Part shown: positions 6,473-63,727 of the stretch, piece after piece
How the letters are laid out: each line of letters starts with the position of its first letter
Numbering within the stretch: the stretch's first letter is position 1
Source: Gammaproteobacteria bacterium
Lineage (GTDB): Bacteria > Pseudomonadota > Gammaproteobacteria > Steroidobacterales > UBA11654
DNA: 63,727 nucleotides
Reading direction: 5' to 3'
Assembly (NCBI GenBank): GCA_002691465.1
Contig: NZHP01000011.1
Span: forward strand, 1-63,727
The notes under the pieces: model-generated
Database searches by the model: none
The model's input: the letters and a program-made list of their open reading frames with translations, nothing else
Told to the model about the DNA's origin: nothing
Translations under genes and position numbers: made by a program

Positions 6473-7813
6473 ATGGCGAATACTATCAACACTGCAGGTG
6501 GATCATTTGCTGATATGTCTAGGTTTACAGAGCTTAGACAGCGCTTGTTTTTTTTGATTGGTGCATTGGTTGTATATAGAATTGGAACATATATACCTGT
6601 TCCAGGCATAGATCCAAACGCTTTACAGAATTTTTTTGAAGAGCAATCTGGCACGATTCTAAGCATGTTCAACATGTTTTCAGGTGGTGCGCTTGAGAGA
6701 TTGAGTATATTCGCTCTTGGAATATTTCCATATATCTCTTGTTCAATAGTGATGCAACTTGCCAGTGCGACCACTCCTGCCCTTAAAGAGCTAAAAAAGG
6801 AAGGAGAGTCGGGAAGAAGGAAAATTACACAATACACTAGATATGGAACAGTTTTTTTGGCTGCTTTTCAGTCCTTTGGAGCCTCAATTGCATTGCAAAA
6901 TCAGGGAGTAGTTGTAGATCCAGGGTTTAATTTTTTATTCACTTCTTGTGTGACACTTACAACAGGCACAATGTTTCTAATGTGGCTTGGAGAACAGATT
7001 ACAGAAAGAGGGATTGGAAATGGGATCTCCATGATTATCTTAGCTAGCATTATTTCTGGCCTACCTTCGGCAATAGGCGGTACTTTAGAATTAGCTAATA
7101 CGGGTGAAATCTCATCTGCACTTGTTCTCATACTTCTTATTCTGATTGTGGCTGTTACAACTTTTGTAGTTTATGTTGAAAGAGGACAAAGAAGAATTCC
7201 TGTAAATTATGCTAAAAGACAGCAGGGCAGGAGAATGATGCAAGGACAGTCCACTCATCTACCTTTTAAAATTAATATGTCAGGAGTTATCCCACCGATA
7301 TTTGCCTCTAGTATCATTTTATTCCCAGCTACAATAGCAAGCTGGTTTGGTACATCAGAGGGTTTTGACTGGCTACAAAATATAGCTGCAAGTTTGGCTC
7401 CTGGGCAGCCAATCTATATTCTTCTTTATGCTGGCATGATCATGTTTTTCTGCTTTTTTTATACCTCTTTGGTCTTTGATTCTAAAGATACCGCCGATAA
7501 TTTACAAAGATCGGGTGCTTTTATGCCAGGGATTAGACCAGGAAGGCAAACTTCAGAATATATAGATAAAGTGTTAACAAGGTTAACTTTTTGGGGCGGA
7601 TTGTATATCATGCTCGTCTGCTTGATTCCAGAGTTCATGATTCTCTACTTTAGAGTGCCATTTTACTTTGGTGGTACATCGCTTTTGATCATAGTGGTTG
7701 TGGCGATGGATTTCATGGCCCAGTTACAGGCATTAATGATGTCTAAGCAATATGAGGGACTCATGAAAAAGGCAAACTTAAAAAACTATGGAAGAGGTGG
7801 TCGACTTAGATAG
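6473..7813 (+). CDS. secY: Preprotein translocase channel subunit SecY
   Basis: 446 residues (E. coli 443), ten hydrophobic segments expected. Residues near the start ([21 protein letters not shown]) and [11 protein letters not shown] are typical. The C-terminal [14 protein letters not shown] resembles the cytosolic tail. SecY forms the inner-membrane channel with SecE and SecG for Sec-dependent export and membrane insertion. Its place between rplO and rpmJ is the normal spc arrangement. Confidence 0.98.
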
Positions 7814-7825
7814 TAGGAAAATGAG

Positions 7826-7939
7826 ATGAAAGTAAGAGCGTCAGTAAAGAAAATTTGTAGAAACTGCAAGGTCATCAGAAGAAATGGCGTTGTCAGAGTT
7901 ATATGTAAAGACCCAAGACATAAACAGAGGCAAGGATAG
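7826..7939 (+). CDS. rpmJ: 50S ribosomal protein L36
   Basis: A 37-codon gene between secY and rpsM. It begins [14 protein letters not shown] and ends DPRHKQRQG. Cys11, Cys14, Cys27 and His32 form the zinc ribbon, so this is the zinc-binding form of L36. A GGAAA run lies just upstream of ATG 7826. The stop is two bases before rpsM. Confidence 0.97.
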
Positions 7940-7941
7940 TC

Positions 7942-8298
7942 ATGGCAAGAATAGCAGGAGTCAATATACCAGACAATAAGCATGTAAGAGTTTCGCTAAC
8001 TTATGTATATGGAGTAGGAAATTCATTAGCTGTTTCAATTTGCGATAAGCTCAGTATTGCTCACGATGCAAAAGTTATGGATTTATCTGAACAGGAGCTT
8101 GAGAGCATTAGGACTGAACTGGGGAACCATCTCGTAGAGGGTGATCTCAGAAGAGACACATCAACAAATATAAAAAGATTAATGGATCTAGGCTGCTATA
8201 GAGGCATTAGACATAGAAGAGGCTTACCAGTTAGGGGTCAGAAAAGTAAAACTAATGCTAGAACCAGAAAAGGGCCCAAGAAGCCTATGAGAGCTTAA
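7942..8298 (+). CDS. rpsM: 30S ribosomal protein S13
   Basis: 118 residues, identical in length to E. coli S13. Starts [14 protein letters not shown] and ends [18 protein letters not shown], the basic tail that contacts tRNA in the P site. First gene of the alpha operon. There is no gap after rpmJ for an alpha-operon leader. Confidence 0.98.
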
Positions 8299-8307
8299 GG
8301 AAGAAAT

Positions 8308-8688
8308 ATGGCTGTTGGAAAGAAAAAGAAAACTAAGAGAAATGTTATTGAAGGTGTTGCACACATTCATGCGTCATTTAATAACACAATCATAACCATT
8401 ACAGATAGATCGGGAAACACATTGGCTTGGGCTACTGCAGGCGGGTCTGGTTTCAGAGGCTCAAGAAAGAGTACACCATTTGCTGCACAAGTTGCAGCTG
8501 AGAGAGCTGGCACAAAAGCTCAAGAATATGGATTAAAAGATATTTCTGTGAAGGTTAAAGGACCGGGGCCTGGCAGGGAATCTGCACTAAGAGCGCTGAA
8601 TGCAATAGGCCTTAATGTTGTAAGCATAGAAGATGTGACGCCATTACCACATAACGGTTGTCGTCCACCTAAACAAAGAAGGGTATAG
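8308..8688 (+). CDS. rpsK: 30S ribosomal protein S11
   Basis: 126 residues (E. coli 129). Contains [30 protein letters not shown] and the end [15 protein letters not shown], all S11 signatures. S11 forms the 30S platform with S6, S18 and S21. Confidence 0.98.
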
Positions 8689-8702
8689 AGAGGTAAATAC
8701 TA

Positions 8703-9326
8703 ATGGCTAGATATTTAGGACCAAAATGCAAGCTTTCAAGAAGAGAAGGCACAGATTTATTTCTAAAAAGTGGGATCAAACCAATCGAGAGCAAATGTAA
8801 GCTTAATTCGATTCCAGGATCAAAGGTAGGTTCTAGAAGAGAGAGATTGTCTGATTATGGCAATCAGTTAAGAGAGAAGCAAAAACTAAGAAGAATGTAT
8901 GGCGTGATGGAAAAGCAGTTCAGAAATTATTATAAAAAAGCTTCTAAGCTAAAAGGATCAACAGGCGAAAATTTGTTAAAACTTCTTGAAGGCAGGCTAG
9001 ATAATATGGTCTACAGAATGGGTTTTGCAGTGACTAGAGCAGAAGCAAGACAGTTAGTAAGCCATAAATCAATTATGGTTAATGGAAAAGTCATTAATAT
9101 TCCATCATATCAAGTCAATGCTAGCGATGAAGTTTCGGTTACTGATAAGGGAAAAGATCAGCTTAGGGTTAAAAATGCAGTAAATATTTCATCACAACTA
9201 GGTATCAGTGAGTGGTTAAGCGTTGATCAGAAGAAACTGAAAGGTATTGTGAATTCAATACCTGAAAGGGAAGATATTTTACCTGATATTCAAGAAAACC
9301 TCGTAGTTGAGTTTTATTCAAAATAA
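8703..9326 (+). CDS. rpsD: 30S ribosomal protein S4
   Basis: 207 residues (E. coli 206). Starts [20 protein letters not shown]. The S4 RNA-binding domain lies at about 95-155 ([19 protein letters not shown], ..HKSIMVNG). S4 starts 30S assembly and in E. coli represses the alpha operon; no leader target was found here. Confidence 0.98.
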
Positions 9327-9344: not shown

Positions 9345-10382
9345 ATGTCTGAAAATGAAAGTGAAGTCTTAGATGAGATCGTTGAAACGGAAGAAGTTGA
9401 GAAAGAAGAAATTGTCTTAGATCTTCTAAATCCAATGGTCATTAAGTTGGAGTCTCAAAATGAGCTCCATTCAAGAGTATCCATAGAGCCTTTTGAAAGA
9501 GGTTTCGGTTATACATTGGGTAATGCAATTAGGAGGGTACTCCTCTCTAGTTTGCCGGGTTATGCGATTACAGAAGCTCAAATTGATGGTGTTTTACATG
9601 AGTATACAACCATAGAAGGCGTGCAAGAGGACGTTGTTGAGATTCTATTAAACCTCAAAGGTGTTGCTGTTAATATTCATGATAGAGATTCCGCAGATTT
9701 TGTAATTAGTAAGAAAGGGCCATGCACTGTAACTGCCGGGGACATTCAAGTTGATGGTGACACAGAGATCGTGAATCCTGATCATCATATAGCGACCATC
9801 AGCTCAAAGAAAGAACTGAAGATGCAGATCAAGATTGAAAAGGGAACAGGGTATCGCCCAGTTCCTACTCAAAGCAAAGATGCAGATGTAACAATTGGGC
9901 TTCTAAAGCTTGATGCATCGTTTAGCCCAATAAAAACAGTTACATATTCAGTTGAAGCTGCAAGAGTAGAGAATAGAACAGATTTAGATAAGCTAATTGT
10001 TGATCTAGAAACAGATGGAACTATAGATCCAGAAAGAGCCATAAAGTATGCGGGCGCAATTCTTCAAAATCAACTCAGTATATTTACAAATTTGACGAGA
10101 GTACAAGAGCAGAAGAAAGAGGAAGAAGAGGTTCTGATTGATCCAATTATGCTTAGACCTGTGGACGAGCTTGAGCTAACTGTAAGGTCTGCAAATTGTC
10201 TGAAAGCTGAAAACGCTAATTATATCGGCGATCTTGTTCAAAAAACTGAAGTTGAACTACTTCGTACTCCGAATTTGGGTAAGAAATCTCTTAATGAGAT
10301 CAAGGAAGTTCTCGGAAGCCATGGGCTATCACTTGGAATGGAGCTAGATAATTGGCCACCAAAAGAGGCAGTTGTAGACTAA
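9345..10382 (+). CDS. rpoA: RNA polymerase alpha subunit with acidic N-terminal extension
   Basis: 345 residues versus 329 in E. coli. The assembly domain motif [14 protein letters not shown] starts at residue 51 instead of ~31, because ~20 mostly acidic residues ([20 protein letters not shown]) precede the normal N-terminus. A GGGAG at 9334-9338, six bases before ATG 9345, supports this long start. The C-terminal helix-hairpin domain ([18 protein letters not shown]) that binds UP elements and activators is intact. Sits between rpsD and rplQ as usual. Confidence 0.97.
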
Positions 10383-40507: not shown

Positions 40508-40701
40508 GAAGAAGATAACCCACAATACCGTGTCCCATTTGTTGCTCTCAGGCCTGAGCATTAGGTGGGCTCTGACACATTAACGTAGGCTTCCCATTAA
40601 ATGGTAATGCTCAATATTAATGTAGACATTGATCCCTGTTTGTTTAATTAAGGGCCGAGAGGTCCTTCAATGAAACTCGAGCACCGCAGGCAATCTTCTG
40701 C
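40508..40701 (-). ncRNA. ssrS: 6S RNA
   Basis: A 203-bp non-coding gap between zapA and fthC is exactly where gammaproteobacteria keep ssrS. On the minus strand the RNA is about 190 nt. Its two ends pair (AGAAGAT from 40699-40693 with ATCTTCT from 40516-40510), and the pairing continues with wobbles through CCTGCGGTG near the 5' end. An inner stem ACATTAA/TTAATGT is also visible. A long imperfect hairpin with a central bubble is the 6S architecture that binds sigma70 RNA polymerase. Exact ends are estimated. Confidence 0.8.
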
Positions 40702-57760: not shown

Positions 57761-58618
57761 TTAATTAAGAGCAGAGATTCTTTCGGTGCGCCATTTTTCA
57801 GTTGTTTCAATCTGGTTGAAGCAATAAATATGGTAGCCGGCAAGCTTGGAATCGTTGATATCAATTTGCTCAGTAATATCCCTTACCAAATCATCAGGAT
57901 TATAAATACTAGATTTCATCAGTTCCGTTGCAACTTGCGATTTCTTTCTTAAGAATCGCAAGGAATCACCAACACCTATTCTAAGAGAGGTTTTCAGTAG
58001 ACGACCTCGTTCGATTACACCAGGCAGCCCTACCCAAACAGGAAGTTCTATACCTTTATTATGAATCTGATTCATCCAATCATTCAAAATCTCTGCATCG
58101 AAACACATTTGAGTGACAATAAAATCTGCAAGATCTTTCTTTTCTTCAAGCGCTTCCATTAGGATTTCATCGCTCACATCTGGGTGACCCTCGGGATGTG
58201 CAGCCATACCGATTTTATTTAAGTTATGCCCAAGCTTCTTTAAAGCTTTGAGAAGATCAAGGGCATTATTGAAATCACCCATTGGTTCCGGTCTATCGCC
58301 GCCAGGCACAAAAATGCTTTCAATGCCCAATTCATCAAGTTTTTTTATGATCGCTTCAAGGTGTTTTTCACCACTAACGCATTTCGATGCGATATGCGGT
58401 GTTACCTTAAAGCCTCTTTCGATGAGCTTTTCACTAAGCTCCAAGGTTTCATCCACTCCTTTTGTAGGAGAACAGGTGACCGCTAAATACATGTCCGAGG
58501 GGAGAGAGTCTAGTTTATCCTCAATGCCTGGTACCGGAATAATTTCCATATAAGATTTCTGAAGATCTTGTCTTATTCGTTTAGCAACTGTTTCTGATAT
58601 TTGGTTTAAATCATTCAT
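57761..58618 (-). CDS. Methylenetetrahydrofolate reductase (MetF-like)
   Basis: 285 residues (E. coli MetF 296). TIM-barrel flavoprotein features: AVTCSPTKGVDETLEL, VTPHIASKCVSG, IFVPGGDRPEP, GMAAHPEGHPD, DFIVTQMCFDAEIL and PVWVGLPGVIERGRLL. Last gene of the betaine-type operon, 52 bp after the corrinoid protein. In this setting it more likely oxidises methyl-THF to methylene-THF than supplies methionine synthesis; direction is inference. Confidence 0.88.
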   Translation of the reverse strand: MNDLNQISETVAKRIRQDLQKSYMEIIPVPGIEDKLDSLPSDMYLAVTCSPTKGVDETLELSEKLIERGFKVTPHIASKCVSGEKHLEAIIKKLDELGIESIFVPGGDRPEPMGDFNNALDLLKALKKLGHNLNKIGMAAHPEGHPDVSDEILMEALEEKKDLADFIVTQMCFDAEILNDWMNQIHNKGIELPVWVGLPGVIERGRLLKTSLRIGVGDSLRFLRKKSQVATELMKSSIYNPDDLVRDITEQIDINDSKLAGYHIYCFNQIETTEKWRTERISALN

Positions 58619-58670
58619 GTCTTGATAACTATTCGGCTAGATTTGCAATCAGTTTTTGATCAGTTAAAAA

Positions 58671-59381
58671 TTAAGCGGAGCTTTCCTGACGTTCTGTCAC
58701 CATTGCCATCGCAACAGCAGCAGCTTCGGCCGAATCTCTGCAGTATCGATCTGCACCAACAGCCTCTCCAAATTCTTCATTCAATGGAGCACCTCCAACC
58801 AATACAATATAGTCATCTCGTATTCCCTTGTTTACCATTTCATCTATGACGACTTTCATATATGGCATTGTTGTGGTGAGGAGGGCAGACATTCCCAATA
58901 TGTCCGGTTTATGTTTTTCCAGTGCCTCAAAATAATCTTCCACTGAATTATTGATGCCAATGTCGACGACCTCGAAACCCGCGCCTTCGCACATCATGCC
59001 AACAAGGTTCTTTCCAATATCATGAATGTCCCCTTTAACAGTCCCAATTACCATTGAGCCAACAGGCTTGGCACCTGTTTCAGCCAATAAAGGCTTAAGG
59101 ATCTCCATTCCACCTTTCATGGCATTAGCCGCCAATAAAACTTCTGGAACAAAAAGGATCCCGTCTCTAAAATCTATTCCAACAATGGTCATTCCGGCTA
59201 CAAGCGCCTCGTTGAGGACCTTTTCTGGAGACCAACCACGGGATAATAAGATATCTGTGCCTTCTTCTATTTCTTCCTTTAGGCCGTCATACAAGTCATC
59301 ATGCATTTGCTCGACGAGCTCATCATCCGATAAGTCGGCTAAGATAATATCTTCTTCATTTTCTATATATGAGTCACCCAT
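58671..59381 (-). CDS. Methyltransferase cognate corrinoid protein (MttC/MtbC-like)
   Basis: 236 residues. N-terminal helical cap (~25-110), then a B12-binding Rossmann domain. The cobalt ligand is His120 in GDIHDIGKNLV (DxHxxG). Further B12 contacts appear in ILGMSALLTTTM and VLVGGAPLN. Carries the methyl group from the MttB-family enzyme to a folate acceptor. Residues 1-25 form an acidic extension. ATG lies three bases after the MttB-like stop, so the pair is translationally linked. Confidence 0.94.
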   Translation of the reverse strand: MGDSYIENEEDIILADLSDDELVEQMHDDLYDGLKEEIEEGTDILLSRGWSPEKVLNEALVAGMTIVGIDFRDGILFVPEVLLAANAMKGGMEILKPLLAETGAKPVGSMVIGTVKGDIHDIGKNLVGMMCEGAGFEVVDIGINNSVEDYFEALEKHKPDILGMSALLTTTMPYMKVVIDEMVNKGIRDDYIVLVGGAPLNEEFGEAVGADRYCRDSAEAAAVAMAMVTERQESSA

Positions 59382-59384
59382 AAA

Positions 59385-60926
59385 TCAATAATCTCTGTCT
59401 TCAAATTCAGATTTTCTCTTAGCTATAAACTCAAGTAAAGCTTCATCTATTGCAGGATCCAATTCTGGCGCCTCGTATTCTTTCAGCAGTTGCTTCCATT
59501 TTGAATTGGCACGCATTGCAGCGTCCATGCTACCTTCTTCTTCCCATTGCTCAAAGCTATTATTATCGGCAATTTCAGAACGATAAAACGCTGATTCAAA
59601 ATTCGCTTGAGTATGGGCTGCACCAAGGAAGTGACCACCTGGTCCAATTTCTCTGAACGCATCCATTGCCATGGAATTTTCAGACAATTCAACTCCATCA
59701 AGAAGCACGGCGAGCATTCCCGCCTGATCTGCATCCATCATAAATTTTTCATAGCCCATGGCAAGACCGCCCTCTAGCCAGCCAGCTGTGTGTAACATAA
59801 AATTGACCCCAGCTAAGGCAGATGCTTGCAATGTATTCGCCGACTCATATGCAGCTTGTGCATCTGGTATTTTTGAAGCACACAATCCGCCACCACTTCT
59901 GAATGGCACGCCCAATCTTCTGGCCAGTGAACCTACAATTGTCATCACGTGGCTTGGTTCTGGCGTACCAAATGTTGGCGCTCCTGTTTGCATTGAGACC
60001 GCACTAGCAAAAGTACCAAAAATGACTGGAGCACCTGGTTTTACAAGCTGTATATAAGCCATTCCAGCAAGTGCTTCTGCCAGAATCTGTGTGACTGTGC
60101 CTGCTATTGTGACCGGAGACATCGCACCAGCCAAAATAAATGGAGAAATTATCGTTGCTTGATTATTTTCAGCATAAACCGCGGCAGCACCGAGCATTGT
60201 TTCATCAAACGTTAAAGGTGAATTGGCATTAATCAAGCTGGTTAAAACGGTGTTCTCCTCTACAAAGCTTTCCCCAAAAACCAGTTTTGCCATTGCGACG
60301 GTGTCTTCAGCCCTTTTGGGATGTGTAACAGATCCCATAAAAGCTTTATCACTGTATTTGATATGACTGTAGATCATGTCGAAGTGACGTTTATTGACAG
60401 GAACATCAACGGGCTCACATATGGTCCCACCGGAATGATGAAGATTTGGACTCATGTAGGCTAATTTTACAAAATTCTGAAAATCTTCAAGTGTCGCGTA
60501 TCTTCGACCTTTGTCTAAATCTCTTACAAATGGAGGCCCATAAGCTGGAACAAGTACGGTATTTCGACCACCTATGATTACATTATTTTTTGGATTTCTT
60601 GCATGTTGTGTATATTCACTTGGTGCATTTGCCTGGATCAGCTCCCGACATAAACCTTGTGGGAAGCGCACTTTTTCACCATCAATATCTGCTCCTGCAT
60701 TCTTGAATAATTCTACAGCTCTTGGAGAATCTCGAAACTCAATTCCAATCTCCTCAAGTATGATGTCTGCATTTTTTTCAATTGATGTAAGGCCTTCTTC
60801 ATCCAATATTTCAAAATATGGAATTTTGCGTTCAATATATGGTCGATAATTAACCGCACCTTGTTCTCTGGCCGCTAATTTCTTTCTTCTTCCGCCTGCT
60901 TTTCTTCTGCGTTTTCTTTCAGGCAT
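59385..60926 (-). CDS. MttB-family corrinoid methyltransferase, no amber codon
   Basis: 513 residues from ATG 60926 (MPERKRRRKAGGRRKK), supported by a GAGGAG eight bases upstream; a TTG start six codons earlier is possible. Strongly basic first ~25 residues, then an MttB-type TIM barrel (LEEIGIEFRD, GRRYATLEDFQNFVKL, AGAMSPVTIAGT, FRSGGGLCASKIPDAQAAYE, FREIGPGGHFLGAAHTQANFESAFYR). The reading frame has no internal TAG, so it is a pyrrolysine-free member like the glycine betaine enzyme MtgB, not trimethylamine MttB. It probably methylates the adjacent corrinoid protein from a quaternary amine. Confidence 0.92.
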   Translation of the reverse strand: MPERKRRRKAGGRRKKLAAREQGAVNYRPYIERKIPYFEILDEEGLTSIEKNADIILEEIGIEFRDSPRAVELFKNAGADIDGEKVRFPQGLCRELIQANAPSEYTQHARNPKNNVIIGGRNTVLVPAYGPPFVRDLDKGRRYATLEDFQNFVKLAYMSPNLHHSGGTICEPVDVPVNKRHFDMIYSHIKYSDKAFMGSVTHPKRAEDTVAMAKLVFGESFVEENTVLTSLINANSPLTFDETMLGAAAVYAENNQATIISPFILAGAMSPVTIAGTVTQILAEALAGMAYIQLVKPGAPVIFGTFASAVSMQTGAPTFGTPEPSHVMTIVGSLARRLGVPFRSGGGLCASKIPDAQAAYESANTLQASALAGVNFMLHTAGWLEGGLAMGYEKFMMDADQAGMLAVLLDGVELSENSMAMDAFREIGPGGHFLGAAHTQANFESAFYRSEIADNNSFEQWEEEGSMDAAMRANSKWKQLLKEYEAPELDPAIDEALLEFIAKRKSEFEDRDY

Positions 60927-60949
60927 ACATTCTCCTCGCTCCAATCAAT

Positions 60950-63544
60950 TTATGAACGAACCTTTTCATTTTTCGGATCGTATAGACAGCCCTTGCCAAC
61001 TATCTGAACGGTCATAGGATACATACCATCACCATTTTCATTAAAGTATTCCAGTGTAAGCTGCTTCCCAGGGTCAGCAATCTCATTAGGAAGATAACCC
61101 ATCACGACATGTTTCTTAATTGATGGACAGTAAGACATGCTGGTGCTGTAGGATCTTCGGCCTTTGCTATCGATTGGAACTTCACCTGAATCAGGATCAA
61201 TGATTGGTGAAATACCGACAGGGTAACGCGAACCACCACCGGAAACTTCCAAATCATCCAACGTCATGGTGCATAGAATTGCACTAGGCTCTTCTTCTCG
61301 ATGGACAAGGTGAGCTTTTTTCCCATGAAAATCCGCTTCTTTAACTTTGGGTCTTTGAACAGCGGATTCGCAAGCATTGTATTCGGTTAATAAGTCAGCG
61401 CCTTGAAGTCTGAAGCTCTTCTCAAGCCGTCGACTATTTGCATAAGTTTCTATACCTACTGGAATAACTCCAACCTCAAGGAGAGAATCATAAAGAGCTA
61501 GACCATCCTCACTGTCATTATTCAAATAGATTTCCCAACCACTCTCTCCGACATAAGAAATACGGGCTGCCCAAACATCAATTGCTTTCCCTCCAGATAA
61601 ATTGAGGGTGAGATGTTTTGCCGCTACAAAAGGAAAATTCTCGATACTGATCTCATTGGGATCAATAAAATGACCGAGTGCATCTTTCGCTTTAGGCCCC
61701 CATAATCCTAAAGTTGCCATATCATGTGTTCGAATCTTCATATCTGCATTAAAGCCCATGTCATCTCGGTAATTACGCATTGTGATCCAGTCACGGTTTC
61801 CATCAGCACCACCGGTAACGACTCGATAACTATCAGATCCCAAACGCGAGATGGTTAGGTCTGCATGTACACCGCCATCTTCATCTAAAAAATTGGTATA
61901 GATAATTTTATCTTCAGGAGTATCGCCACCAACTTTGGCAACCGAAAGATCTTCTAGCATCTGCTCTGCATCAGGACCCTCGACATCAACGATCGCAAAA
62001 TGGGATAGATTGATCATCCCAGCAGAATCACTCATTGCTAAATGTTCGGCATTGGCAATTTCATATGGCACATGCCTTCTGTCCCATTCGTTTTCTCTAA
62101 TCGGGACCTCTTGCATGTAATTATCCAGTTTTTCGCGATTGCTCTCATAGGCAAATGCTCGTTCCCATCCTCCAATCTCATTTTCAAAGTGGCCGCCCAG
62201 TTCTTTTTCTCTTGCATAAAAAGGACTAACGTATAATTCTCGACTGCTGATATAGGGTTCCTTTGGATGGACGGGTGGAGTGTATATGGTTTGTGCATTT
62301 TCAAAAGACCTTGATTTGACAAAAGCTTTTTCCTTTTGTGCAGGATAAAATCTGGCAATGTCAAAGGAGTGTATGTCCATCTGTGTCTTACCATTGGTCA
62401 TCCATTCAGCACAGAGTCTGGCACAACCGGGACCATCTTTCACCCAAACCGCTTCGCATAACCAAAAGCCTCTGATTTCTGGGCTTTCACCTATTAAAGA
62501 ACCACCATCAGGCGTTACAGATAGCAATCCATTAAAGGAACTTCTTTCATCCCAGCCCAGTTCAGCGAGTATCGGTGTTGTTTCAAAAGCTTTTTCTAGA
62601 GGCTCAGCAACTTCTTCGAGATCAAGGTATCTCATCGAATCAGACATCATAGTCTTTTCAGGATTACCAATGTCCTCGGCATCAACAAGCCTAGGTTCTT
62701 TATCTTCATAAAAACCCCATTCAAGCATGCCACCATGCAGTTTGCCTGTGTCTCGAACATAAGCAGAGTTTCCCTGGTCTCTCATCAGGGGATAAACAAG
62801 AAAATCTTCAGCACCTTGTGCTTCAGGCAGCGGACCAAAGAACAATAATGGATGTTCAACTGGCATTAATGGAACTGAAACACCAGCCATCTCTCCAACC
62901 AAAGGCCCCCAGATTCCAGATGCGATGACCACCTTGTCAGTTTTGATTGTTCCTTTTTCTGTTTTTACAGCAGTAATTCGTCCATCCTCAATCTCAAAAC
63001 CAGTTGCAGGTGTATCGGCATATGTTTGAAGCGCACCTTTTTCTTTTGCTTCCTCAACAGCAAACCGAACCACATCCTGAGAGCGAGGCGTTACAAGACC
63101 GGCATCCGGATCCCACATTGCTCCTCGTATTGAATCTTCGTCTAATAAAGGAAATTTTTCTTTGGCTTCAGCGGCAGAAATTAACCTTACATTGGTTCCA
63201 AAAGCCTTGCCTGATGCCACTTTTCGTTTCAGCTCTTCCCAGAGAACATCATCATCTTTTCGACAGATCTCTAAGCCTCCTTTTTTTAAGAAAAAGCCAT
63301 TGTCATCGTAAAAATTACGACTGAAAGCTGTCGACCAGTTGCCGAGTTTGTCGTGTGTAGTGTTGTAGACAAAATCTGAAGCGTGAGCTGTAGATCCCAT
63401 ATCAGAGGGAATGACACTCGATTTTTCCAATCCTACTATGTTTTTTTGACCAAGCTCTGTAAGCCAGTATGCGATCATCGATCCAACGATGCCGCCAATG
63501 CCAACTATGACGACTTCAGCCTCGCTTGGAAACTTAGAGGCCAT
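60950..63544 (-). CDS. Dimethylglycine/sarcosine dehydrogenase-like flavoprotein with GcvT domain
   Basis: 864 residues, two parts. Residues 1-~400 are a DAO-type FAD oxidoreductase: VVIVGIGGIVGSMIAYWL (dinucleotide fold) and GSTAHASDFV, where the His corresponds to the covalent flavin site. Residues ~430-864 are a GcvT aminomethyltransferase-like domain that binds THF (AISYVGESGWEIYL-type, SFRLQGADLLTEYNACESAV). Removes an N-methyl group from dimethylglycine or sarcosine and traps it as methylene-THF. Second in the operon after the transporter, 23 bp before the MttB-like gene. Confidence 0.9.
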   Translation of the reverse strand: MASKFPSEAEVVIVGIGGIVGSMIAYWLTELGQKNIVGLEKSSVIPSDMGSTAHASDFVYNTTHDKLGNWSTAFSRNFYDDNGFFLKKGGLEICRKDDDVLWEELKRKVASGKAFGTNVRLISAAEAKEKFPLLDEDSIRGAMWDPDAGLVTPRSQDVVRFAVEEAKEKGALQTYADTPATGFEIEDGRITAVKTEKGTIKTDKVVIASGIWGPLVGEMAGVSVPLMPVEHPLLFFGPLPEAQGAEDFLVYPLMRDQGNSAYVRDTGKLHGGMLEWGFYEDKEPRLVDAEDIGNPEKTMMSDSMRYLDLEEVAEPLEKAFETTPILAELGWDERSSFNGLLSVTPDGGSLIGESPEIRGFWLCEAVWVKDGPGCARLCAEWMTNGKTQMDIHSFDIARFYPAQKEKAFVKSRSFENAQTIYTPPVHPKEPYISSRELYVSPFYAREKELGGHFENEIGGWERAFAYESNREKLDNYMQEVPIRENEWDRRHVPYEIANAEHLAMSDSAGMINLSHFAIVDVEGPDAEQMLEDLSVAKVGGDTPEDKIIYTNFLDEDGGVHADLTISRLGSDSYRVVTGGADGNRDWITMRNYRDDMGFNADMKIRTHDMATLGLWGPKAKDALGHFIDPNEISIENFPFVAAKHLTLNLSGGKAIDVWAARISYVGESGWEIYLNNDSEDGLALYDSLLEVGVIPVGIETYANSRRLEKSFRLQGADLLTEYNACESAVQRPKVKEADFHGKKAHLVHREEEPSAILCTMTLDDLEVSGGGSRYPVGISPIIDPDSGEVPIDSKGRRSYSTSMSYCPSIKKHVVMGYLPNEIADPGKQLTLEYFNENGDGMYPMTVQIVGKGCLYDPKNEKVRS

Positions 63545-63603
63545 GGGTGTGAAATATATAGGATTTTTTGGTCATAATATGGATCATCAGACCACTAAAT
63601 TTT

Positions 63604-63639
63604 ATTGGAATCAATCTTTTTTAATTGGAATCAATCTTT
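63604..63639. repeat. Tandem 20-bp duplication at the transporter 3' end
   Basis: ATTGGAATCAATCTTT occurs at 63604-63619 and again at 63624-63639, exactly 20 bp apart. The second copy encodes the last residues and stop of the BCCT-like gene; the first lies in the intergenic gap. It looks like a recent small duplication. Confidence 0.85.
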
Positions 63640-63727
63640 AATTTTTTATATAAGTTTCTAGCAGCAATACAGGCAATCAATGCAAAGGGCAGACCAGTTG
63701 CAATAACCGATGTCTGAAGTGCTGATA
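63621..63727 (-). CDS. BCCT-family transporter, C-terminal end only
   Basis: Partial gene entering from the right edge. 34 codons are visible, opening SALQTSVIATGLPFALIACI and ending AARNLYKKLKIDSN. The (A)LQT..I.TGLPFA pattern in a last membrane helix is typical of betaine/choline/carnitine transporters. It lies 76 bp upstream of the flavoprotein start on the same strand, so it is probably the first or an early gene of the quaternary-amine operon. The match rests on a short segment. Confidence 0.7.
   Translation of the reverse strand, partial: SALQTSVIATGLPFALIACIAARNLYKKLKIDSN

What the first reader, a model, noticed from the sequence alone, without database searches (positions are those of the whole stretch)
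57761..63727. Compact corrinoid-dependent quaternary-amine demethylation operon in an apparently aerobic gammaproteobacterium
Read on the minus strand: BCCT transporter end, DMGDH-like flavoprotein, MttB-family methyltransferase, corrinoid protein, MetF-like reductase. Seen: family motifs, 3-76 bp spacing, one strand. Known: MtgB-type enzymes demethylate glycine betaine to dimethylglycine, and DMGDH demethylates dimethylglycine to sarcosine. Inferred: one operon imports betaine and strips two methyl groups, one by cobalamin and one by flavin/THF, feeding both into folate for energy or biosynthesis. MttB systems are best known from anaerobes, so this pairing with a flavin demethylase is worth following.
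Basis: partly seen in the sequence, partly recalled or inferred. Interest (0 to 1): 0.75.

Follow-up and report, generated by a model that had tools for sequence, protein, structure and literature searches.

The report
Vitamin-B12 betaine-eating operon, marine gammaproteobacterium
This is a real gene cluster that lets a small, oxygen-respiring ocean bacterium import glycine betaine and strip methyl groups from it with a vitamin-B12 protein and a flavin enzyme; the same B12 system was published in 2025 for other marine bacteria, so this is a new, slightly rearranged member of a known kind.

Summary
The minus strand carries the end of a BCCT transporter, then a DMGDH-type flavoprotein, an MttB-family methyltransferase, a corrinoid protein and a MetF-like reductase. 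The order is kept in sister genomes, where the transporter is whole. The proposed function is largely right but no longer new: Mausz et al. (PNAS 2025, PMC12478193) describe this MtgBCD system in aerobic marine bacteria, gammaproteobacteria included, often beside the later demethylation genes. The MttB protein groups with the Sinorhizobium MtgB of the mtgBCDE locus (68% identity; the corrinoid protein is 80%). The flavoprotein groups with alphaproteobacterial enzymes encoded among betaine-oxygenase (GbcAB-like), sarcosine-oxidase and BCCT genes, which supports a dimethylglycine role. One correction: the window operon is not self-sufficient. MtgD (methyl-corrinoid:THF transfer), the RamA reactivase and DUF1638 lie together on another contig. 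Three details are specific to this lineage: an alpha-type DMGDH, unlike most other gammaproteobacterial mtgB loci examined; a divergent MetF type; and, in the window organism, mtgE (the methionine-synthase arm) missing at its syntenic place. No sarcosine oxidase was found. The substrate is inferred, not tested.

The parts
63621..63727 (-). C-terminal 34 codons and stop of a BCCT betaine/carnitine/choline transporter, cut by the contig end
   Evidence: Frame reads SALQTSVIATGLPFALIACIAARNLYKKLKIDSN*; identical to the end of the complete BCCT upstream of the same operon in G007 (PF02028 542 bits).
60950..63544 (-). Dimethylglycine dehydrogenase-type flavoprotein (DAO + FAO_M + GCV_T), 864 aa; inferred DMG -> sarcosine with the methyl carried to THF
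   Evidence: Pfam; best solved relative is Arthrobacter N,N-dimethylglycine oxidase, E=7e-108; DMGO residues H48, H225, Y259 and D552 all conserved; about 50% identical to alphaproteobacterial proteins in gbcAB/sox/BCCT clusters.
59385..60926 (-). mtgB: non-pyrrolysine MttB-family betaine:corrinoid methyltransferase (ATG start at 60926 preferred; TTG at 60944 possible)
   Evidence: PF06253 E=2.5e-232; 68% identical to S. meliloti MtgB, which is the same protein as PDB 4yyc; no in-frame TAG.
58671..59381 (-). mtgC: cobalamin-binding methyl carrier, 236 aa, GDIHDIG motif at residue 117
   Evidence: PF02607 + PF02310; 80% identical to the MtgC of the S. meliloti mtg locus; motif.
57761..58618 (-). 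MetF-like methylenetetrahydrofolate reductase of a divergent type (285 aa); inferred to run as 5-methyl-THF -> 5,10-methylene-THF
   Evidence: PF02219 E=1e-16; best solved relative 7xg9, Sphingobium SYK-6 type (organism from own knowledge), E=4e-31, 30% identity; same operon position in sister genomes.

Best explanation
The locus is the entry part of a cobalamin-dependent glycine betaine (GBT) catabolic pathway of the aerobic MtgBCD type. The BCCT protein imports GBT. MtgB moves one methyl to Co(I)-MtgC and releases dimethylglycine. MtgD, encoded elsewhere in the genome with the reactivase RamA and DUF1638, moves the methyl from MtgC to THF. MetF oxidises methyl-THF to methylene-THF. The DMGDH-type flavoprotein oxidises dimethylglycine to sarcosine and delivers its methyl to THF as methylene-THF. 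Methylene-THF then feeds the C1 pool and energy (Fhs present). Shown here: gene content, order, conservation, family and clade membership, conserved catalytic residues, partner genes in the same genome. Inferred from published work on relatives: reaction directions and the substrate. Not shown: expression, activity, co-transcription.
For: Family and PDB matches. MtgB 68%, MtgC 80%, MtgD 58%, RamA 51%, DUF1638 43% identical to the S. meliloti mtg locus; PMC12478193 reports an mtgBCDE locus in S. meliloti. MtgB tree places the window inside the clade holding S. meliloti MtgB/4yyc and Azoarcus (near betA/betB), apart from more distant alpha paralogs. Partner cluster on own contig C15: BCCT, MetF, DUF1638, MtgD, RamA. 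DMGDH clades with alpha proteins lying among gbcAB-like, soxBDAG and BCCT genes and with a gamma homologue in a locus with soxB/soxA, ramA, mtgB, mtgC, DUF1638, mtgD, GbdR and fhs. Own genome has COX1 and Fhs. Ruegeria genetics and proteomics (PMC12478193).
Against: I found no direct assay of a member of this MtgB clade; in Ruegeria, MtgB rests on proteomics while MtgC and MtgD rest on mutants. MttB-family paralogs act on several betaines and clade membership does not prove GBT. No sarcosine dehydrogenase or oxidase with a GCV_T domain was found in the own genome (84% complete), so the pathway is not shown to reach glycine. A second BCCT and a Rieske protein in the own genome leave room for other quaternary amines.
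Confidence: 0.82

Rival explanations
1. The same machinery, but the main substrate of this MtgB is another quaternary amine (for example proline betaine, carnitine or choline), with the flavoprotein demethylating the matching N-methyl product.
For: MttB-family enzymes of Eubacterium act on proline betaine, carnitine, gamma-butyrobetaine and others (PMC12478193). BCCT carriers are not substrate-specific by sequence. The own genome also holds a Rieske oxygenase whose nearest solved relatives include proteins deposited as demethylases.
Against: MtgB groups with S. meliloti MtgB of the mtgBCDE locus. The flavoprotein's relatives lie beside gbcAB-like and sarcosine-oxidase genes and beside GbdR in a mtg/sox locus, all of which points to the GBT-DMG-sarcosine series. 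DMGO catalytic residues are conserved.
Confidence: 0.13
2. The mtgBC genes serve mainly methionine synthesis (the split methionine synthase), and betaine demethylation is minor.
For: In Ruegeria MtgC and MtgD are needed for methionine synthesis as well (PMC12478193); sister genomes keep mtgE beside mtgD.
Against: mtgE is absent from its syntenic place in the window organism while mtgB, mtgC, mtgD and ramA stay intact. mtgB, DMGDH and a methyl-THF-oxidising MetF have no role in the methionine arm. A core-MetE-type protein (351 aa) is present.
Confidence: 0.03
3. The operon is decaying or non-functional in this organism.
For: Two same-genus genomes lack mtgC in the operon (G008, G004) and in G004 mtgB is broken.
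Against: All four window frames are complete, without stops, 98-99% identical to a sister, with intact partners on C15.
Confidence: 0.02

Closest known systems
MtgBCD(E) glycine betaine demethylase / split methionine synthase of Ruegeria pomeroyi, Phaeobacter and Sinorhizobium (Mausz et al. 2025, PMC12478193)
   Same: Non-Pyl MttB-family MtgB, stand-alone MtgC, MtgD, RamA, DUF1638, MetF paralog, BCCT, aerobic host, no MetH detected in the own genome; MtgC 80% and MtgB 68% identical to S. meliloti.
   Different: mtgB and mtgC sit in one operon with DMGDH and a divergent MetF, while mtgD/ramA/DUF1638 are elsewhere; mtgE missing in the window organism; the operon's MetF is not the S. meliloti type.
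MtgBAC system of Desulfitobacterium hafniense (MtgB = PDB 2qne)
   Same: Same reaction logic and protein family (E=1.6e-135).
   Different: Anaerobe; far more distant in the MtgB tree.
N,N-dimethylglycine oxidase (Arthrobacter, 1pj5) / dimethylglycine dehydrogenase
   Same: DAO + FAO_M + GCV_T architecture; H48, H225, Y259, D552 conserved.
   Different: Forms a clade with alphaproteobacterial homologues (about 50% identical), nearer to DMGO than to the human DMGDH in the tree; electron acceptor (oxygen or ETF) not known.
GbcAB (Rieske) - DMGDH - SoxBDAG pathway
   Same: Same DMGDH type and BCCT.
   Different: First methyl removed by MtgBC instead of GbcAB; no sox genes found in the own genome.

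Membership tests
Aerobic MtgBCD system | PF06253 non-Pyl methyltransferase of the MtgB clade | tested here: met
Aerobic MtgBCD system | Stand-alone cobalamin-binding MtgC | tested here: met
   (80% identical to S. meliloti MtgC); below the strict NCBIfam cut-offs of the MtgC models
Aerobic MtgBCD system | MtgD methyl-corrinoid:THF methyltransferase in the genome | tested here: met
   Contig C15, PF00809 and NF005719 over cut-off; not in the window operon
Aerobic MtgBCD system | RamA-type reactivase and DUF1638 in the genome | tested here: met
   Beside mtgD on C15
Aerobic MtgBCD system | Classical MetH absent (usual, about 70% of carriers in PMC12478193) | tested here: met
   No multidomain MetH in the own genome (84% complete); among the genus only G003 has a 1220-aa frame with the MetH domains
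Aerobic MtgBCD system | mtgE (homocysteine module) shared with the system | tested here: not met
   Missing at the syntenic place in the own genome, present in sister G007. mtgE is needed for the methionine arm, not for betaine demethylation, so this bears on the dual function only
Aerobic MtgBCD system | GBT-dependent methylation of MtgC / growth on GBT | not testable with these tools
   Needs enzymes or cultures
Dimethylglycine dehydrogenase/oxidase | DAO + FAO_M + GCV_T domains and catalytic residues H48/H225/Y259/D552 (DMGO numbering) | tested here: met
Dimethylglycine dehydrogenase/oxidase | Activity on dimethylglycine | not testable with these tools
   Only genomic context supports it
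MetF / MTHFR | PF02219 over cut-off and a solved MTHFR homologue | tested here: met
   61.6 bits against 24; 7xg9 E=4e-31; far below the NCBIfam equivalog cut-offs, hence a divergent type
BCCT transporter | PF02028 | tested here: met
   Fragment only in the window (17 bits, below cut-off); complete in sister G007 (542 bits)
Pyrrolysine MttB | In-frame TAG (pyrrolysine) | tested here: not met
   No in-frame stop; Rfam PYLIS_3 hits only by sequence likeness

The most novel reading that the evidence does not exclude
In this lineage the corrinoid module has been cut loose from methionine synthesis: mtgE is deleted, mtgBC is packed with an alpha-type DMGDH and a divergent catabolic MetF, and a bacterium without detected cobalamin ring synthesis imports B12 largely to burn betaine methyl groups.
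Probability: 0.3. Interest if true: 0.45.

Novelty: new member of a known kind. Interest (0 to 1): 0.3.

Why it matters
It places the recently described B12-dependent betaine demethylation in a small-genome marine gammaproteobacterial genus, probably dependent on outside B12 (no CbiC in 11 family genomes), and shows how the modules are reshuffled. If the mtgE loss is real, it separates the catabolic from the methionine role of MtgC, which the 2025 paper found joined, and gives a natural test of that coupling.

Tried and rejected
Pyrrolysine: Rfam PYLIS_3 matched the mtgB coding strand in the window and in sister L192, but there is no in-frame TAG, so it was rejected. One multi-region request failed on a size limit and was repeated. 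The idea that the operon is self-sufficient was rejected because MtgD/RamA/DUF1638 are on another contig. The idea that this DMGDH is the one usual at gammaproteobacterial mtgB loci was rejected by the tree. The MtgB tree used the quick method and has several long rows; only the placement of the window with S. meliloti/Azoarcus-type MtgB against the distant paralogs is used. A paper search joining DMGDH, MttB, Gammaproteobacteria and cobalamin returned nothing. Structure prediction was not used because solved homologues exist.

Full report
WHAT IS THERE. The window is the whole of contig C31 as held, from a 1.40-Mb, 84%-complete genome in 41 contigs. At its right end, read on the minus strand, are the last 34 codons of a BCCT transporter, then a DAO/FAO_M/GCV_T flavoprotein (864 aa), an MttB-family protein (513 aa from the ATG at 60926), a corrinoid protein (236 aa) and a MetF-like protein (285 aa). 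The gaps are 76, 23, 3 and 52 bp. Sister genome G007 has the complete BCCT gene in front of the same four genes, and its last 34 residues equal the window fragment.

CONSERVATION. Close relatives in named public contigs (uncultured marine gammaproteobacteria such as AG-365-L08, AG-447-O13, SP335, MED656) keep the order dmgdh-mtgB-mtgC-metF. Within the genus, G008 and G004 lack mtgC between mtgB and metF, and mtgB is broken by stops or frameshifts in G004. G004 keeps a second mtgC beside mtgE elsewhere. A next group (AG-319-E21, ANT-115, MED-G80, FRAM18) has mtgB-mtgC-metF without the window-type flavoprotein in front.

THE MISSING PARTNERS. The operon has no enzyme to pass the methyl from MtgC to THF and no reactivase. 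Both are on contig C15 of the same genome: BCCT, MetF of another type (302 aa), DUF1638, MtgD (NF005719 over cut-off) and RamA (RACo_C_ter), followed by a GbcA/Stc2-like Rieske protein. In sister G007 the homocysteine module mtgE lies just before DUF1638. In the window genome the flanks align on either side of a missing stretch of about 1.2 kb that holds mtgE. The identity to G007 is 97% left and 91% right of the junction, so a chimeric assembly is not fully excluded. A core-MetE-type protein of 351 aa could serve methionine synthesis.

WHICH SUBSTRATE. The MttB protein is 68% and the corrinoid protein 80% identical to those of a S. meliloti pSymB locus that also holds MtgD, RamA, DUF1638 and bmt. 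PDB 4yyc is that same S. meliloti MttB protein (zero branch in the tree). The tree holds S. meliloti, Azoarcus (near betA and betB) and the gammaproteobacteria nearer to one another than to the more distant alphaproteobacterial paralogs and D. hafniense MtgB. The flavoprotein is nearest, among solved structures, to Arthrobacter dimethylglycine oxidase, with H48, H225, Y259 and D552 kept (residue roles from general knowledge of DMGO). Its 50%-identical relatives in Thalassospira and Ponticoccus lie with a GbcAB-like pair, BCCT, ETF and sarcosine-oxidase genes. A gammaproteobacterial relative (L050, 55%) lies in a locus with soxB, soxA, ramA, mtgB, mtgC, DUF1638, mtgD, a GbdR-type regulator over its cut-off and fhs. 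The flavoproteins near mtgB in most other gammaproteobacteria examined form other clades, one of them with human DMGDH. So this lineage appears to use an alpha-type DMGDH. How it was gained was not tested.

METF. The operon's MetF-like protein is a divergent MTHFR: 61.6 bits in Pfam, best solved match 7xg9. Members at other gammaproteobacterial mtg loci are 25-27% identical to it and 33-34% to 7xg9. Oxidation of methyl-THF is inferred from the proposed role of MetF2 in Ruegeria (PMC12478193).

MECHANISM. Shown: gene content, order, families, clades, conserved residues and partner genes. Inferred: BCCT imports GBT; MtgB methylates MtgC and gives dimethylglycine; MtgD passes the methyl to THF; RamA and DUF1638 reactivate the corrinoid; MetF gives methylene-THF; the flavoprotein gives sarcosine and a second methylene-THF. 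Open: no SoxA or other large GCV_T sarcosine enzyme was found in the own genome, so sarcosine may be handled by the same flavoprotein, by another oxidase or by genes missing from the assembly. The host has COX1 and Fhs. No CbiC was found in any of 11 family genomes, which suggests but does not prove dependence on outside B12.

WHAT IS KNOWN. Mausz et al. 2025 (PMC12478193) established MtgC and MtgD as essential for GBT growth and methionine synthesis in Ruegeria pomeroyi, proposed MetF2 as the methyl-THF oxidase, found mtgBCD in marine alpha-, gamma- and deltaproteobacteria, and noted that genes for the following demethylation steps are often nearby. The window is a member of that kind.

VERDICT. 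Real, conserved, and most likely a GBT demethylation operon of the MtgBCD type; ordinary in kind. The lineage-specific points are the operon layout, the DMGDH type and the apparent loss of mtgE.

Noticed in passing
L181 (own contig C15) 9560-9860: mtgE is missing at its syntenic place relative to G007, while DUF1638, mtgD and ramA are intact; identity to G007 changes from 97% to 91% at the junction, so an assembly chimera is possible.
   Followed up: partly
L191 (G008) 9427-9550 and L195 (G004) 7378-9000: mtgC is absent between mtgB and metF in both genomes, and mtgB is broken in G004, which keeps another mtgC near mtgE.
   Followed up: partly
L181 13681-14886: A Rieske oxygenase of the GbcA/Stc2 kind (below the GbcA cut-off) lies directly after ramA, followed by a probable S-formylglutathione hydrolase (read from the sequence, no family search); the genome may hold an oxygen-dependent quaternary-amine demethylase as well.
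   Followed up: partly
L181 4638-5831: A GcvT-like protein just over the NCBIfam cut-off for DMSP demethylase DmdA (412.4 against 410), next to an acyl-CoA dehydrogenase.
   Followed up: partly
window 59786-59885 (-): Rfam PYLIS_3 (pyrrolysine insertion element of mttB) scores over its gathering threshold in a non-Pyl mttB gene; a sequence-likeness match.
   Followed up: yes
window 40513-40695 (-): 6S RNA (Rfam RF00013, 68.1 bits).
   Followed up: no
L050 19419-20297: A MetF-like protein at an mtg locus with no Pfam match at 1e-6, yet clearly related to solved MTHFR 7xg9 (E=2.6e-45).
   Followed up: partly
L008, L010, L011 (about 14.5-21 kb in L008): Clusters of two DMGDH-type flavoproteins and a distant MttB paralog (about 25% identical to the window mtgB); substrate unknown.
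   Followed up: no
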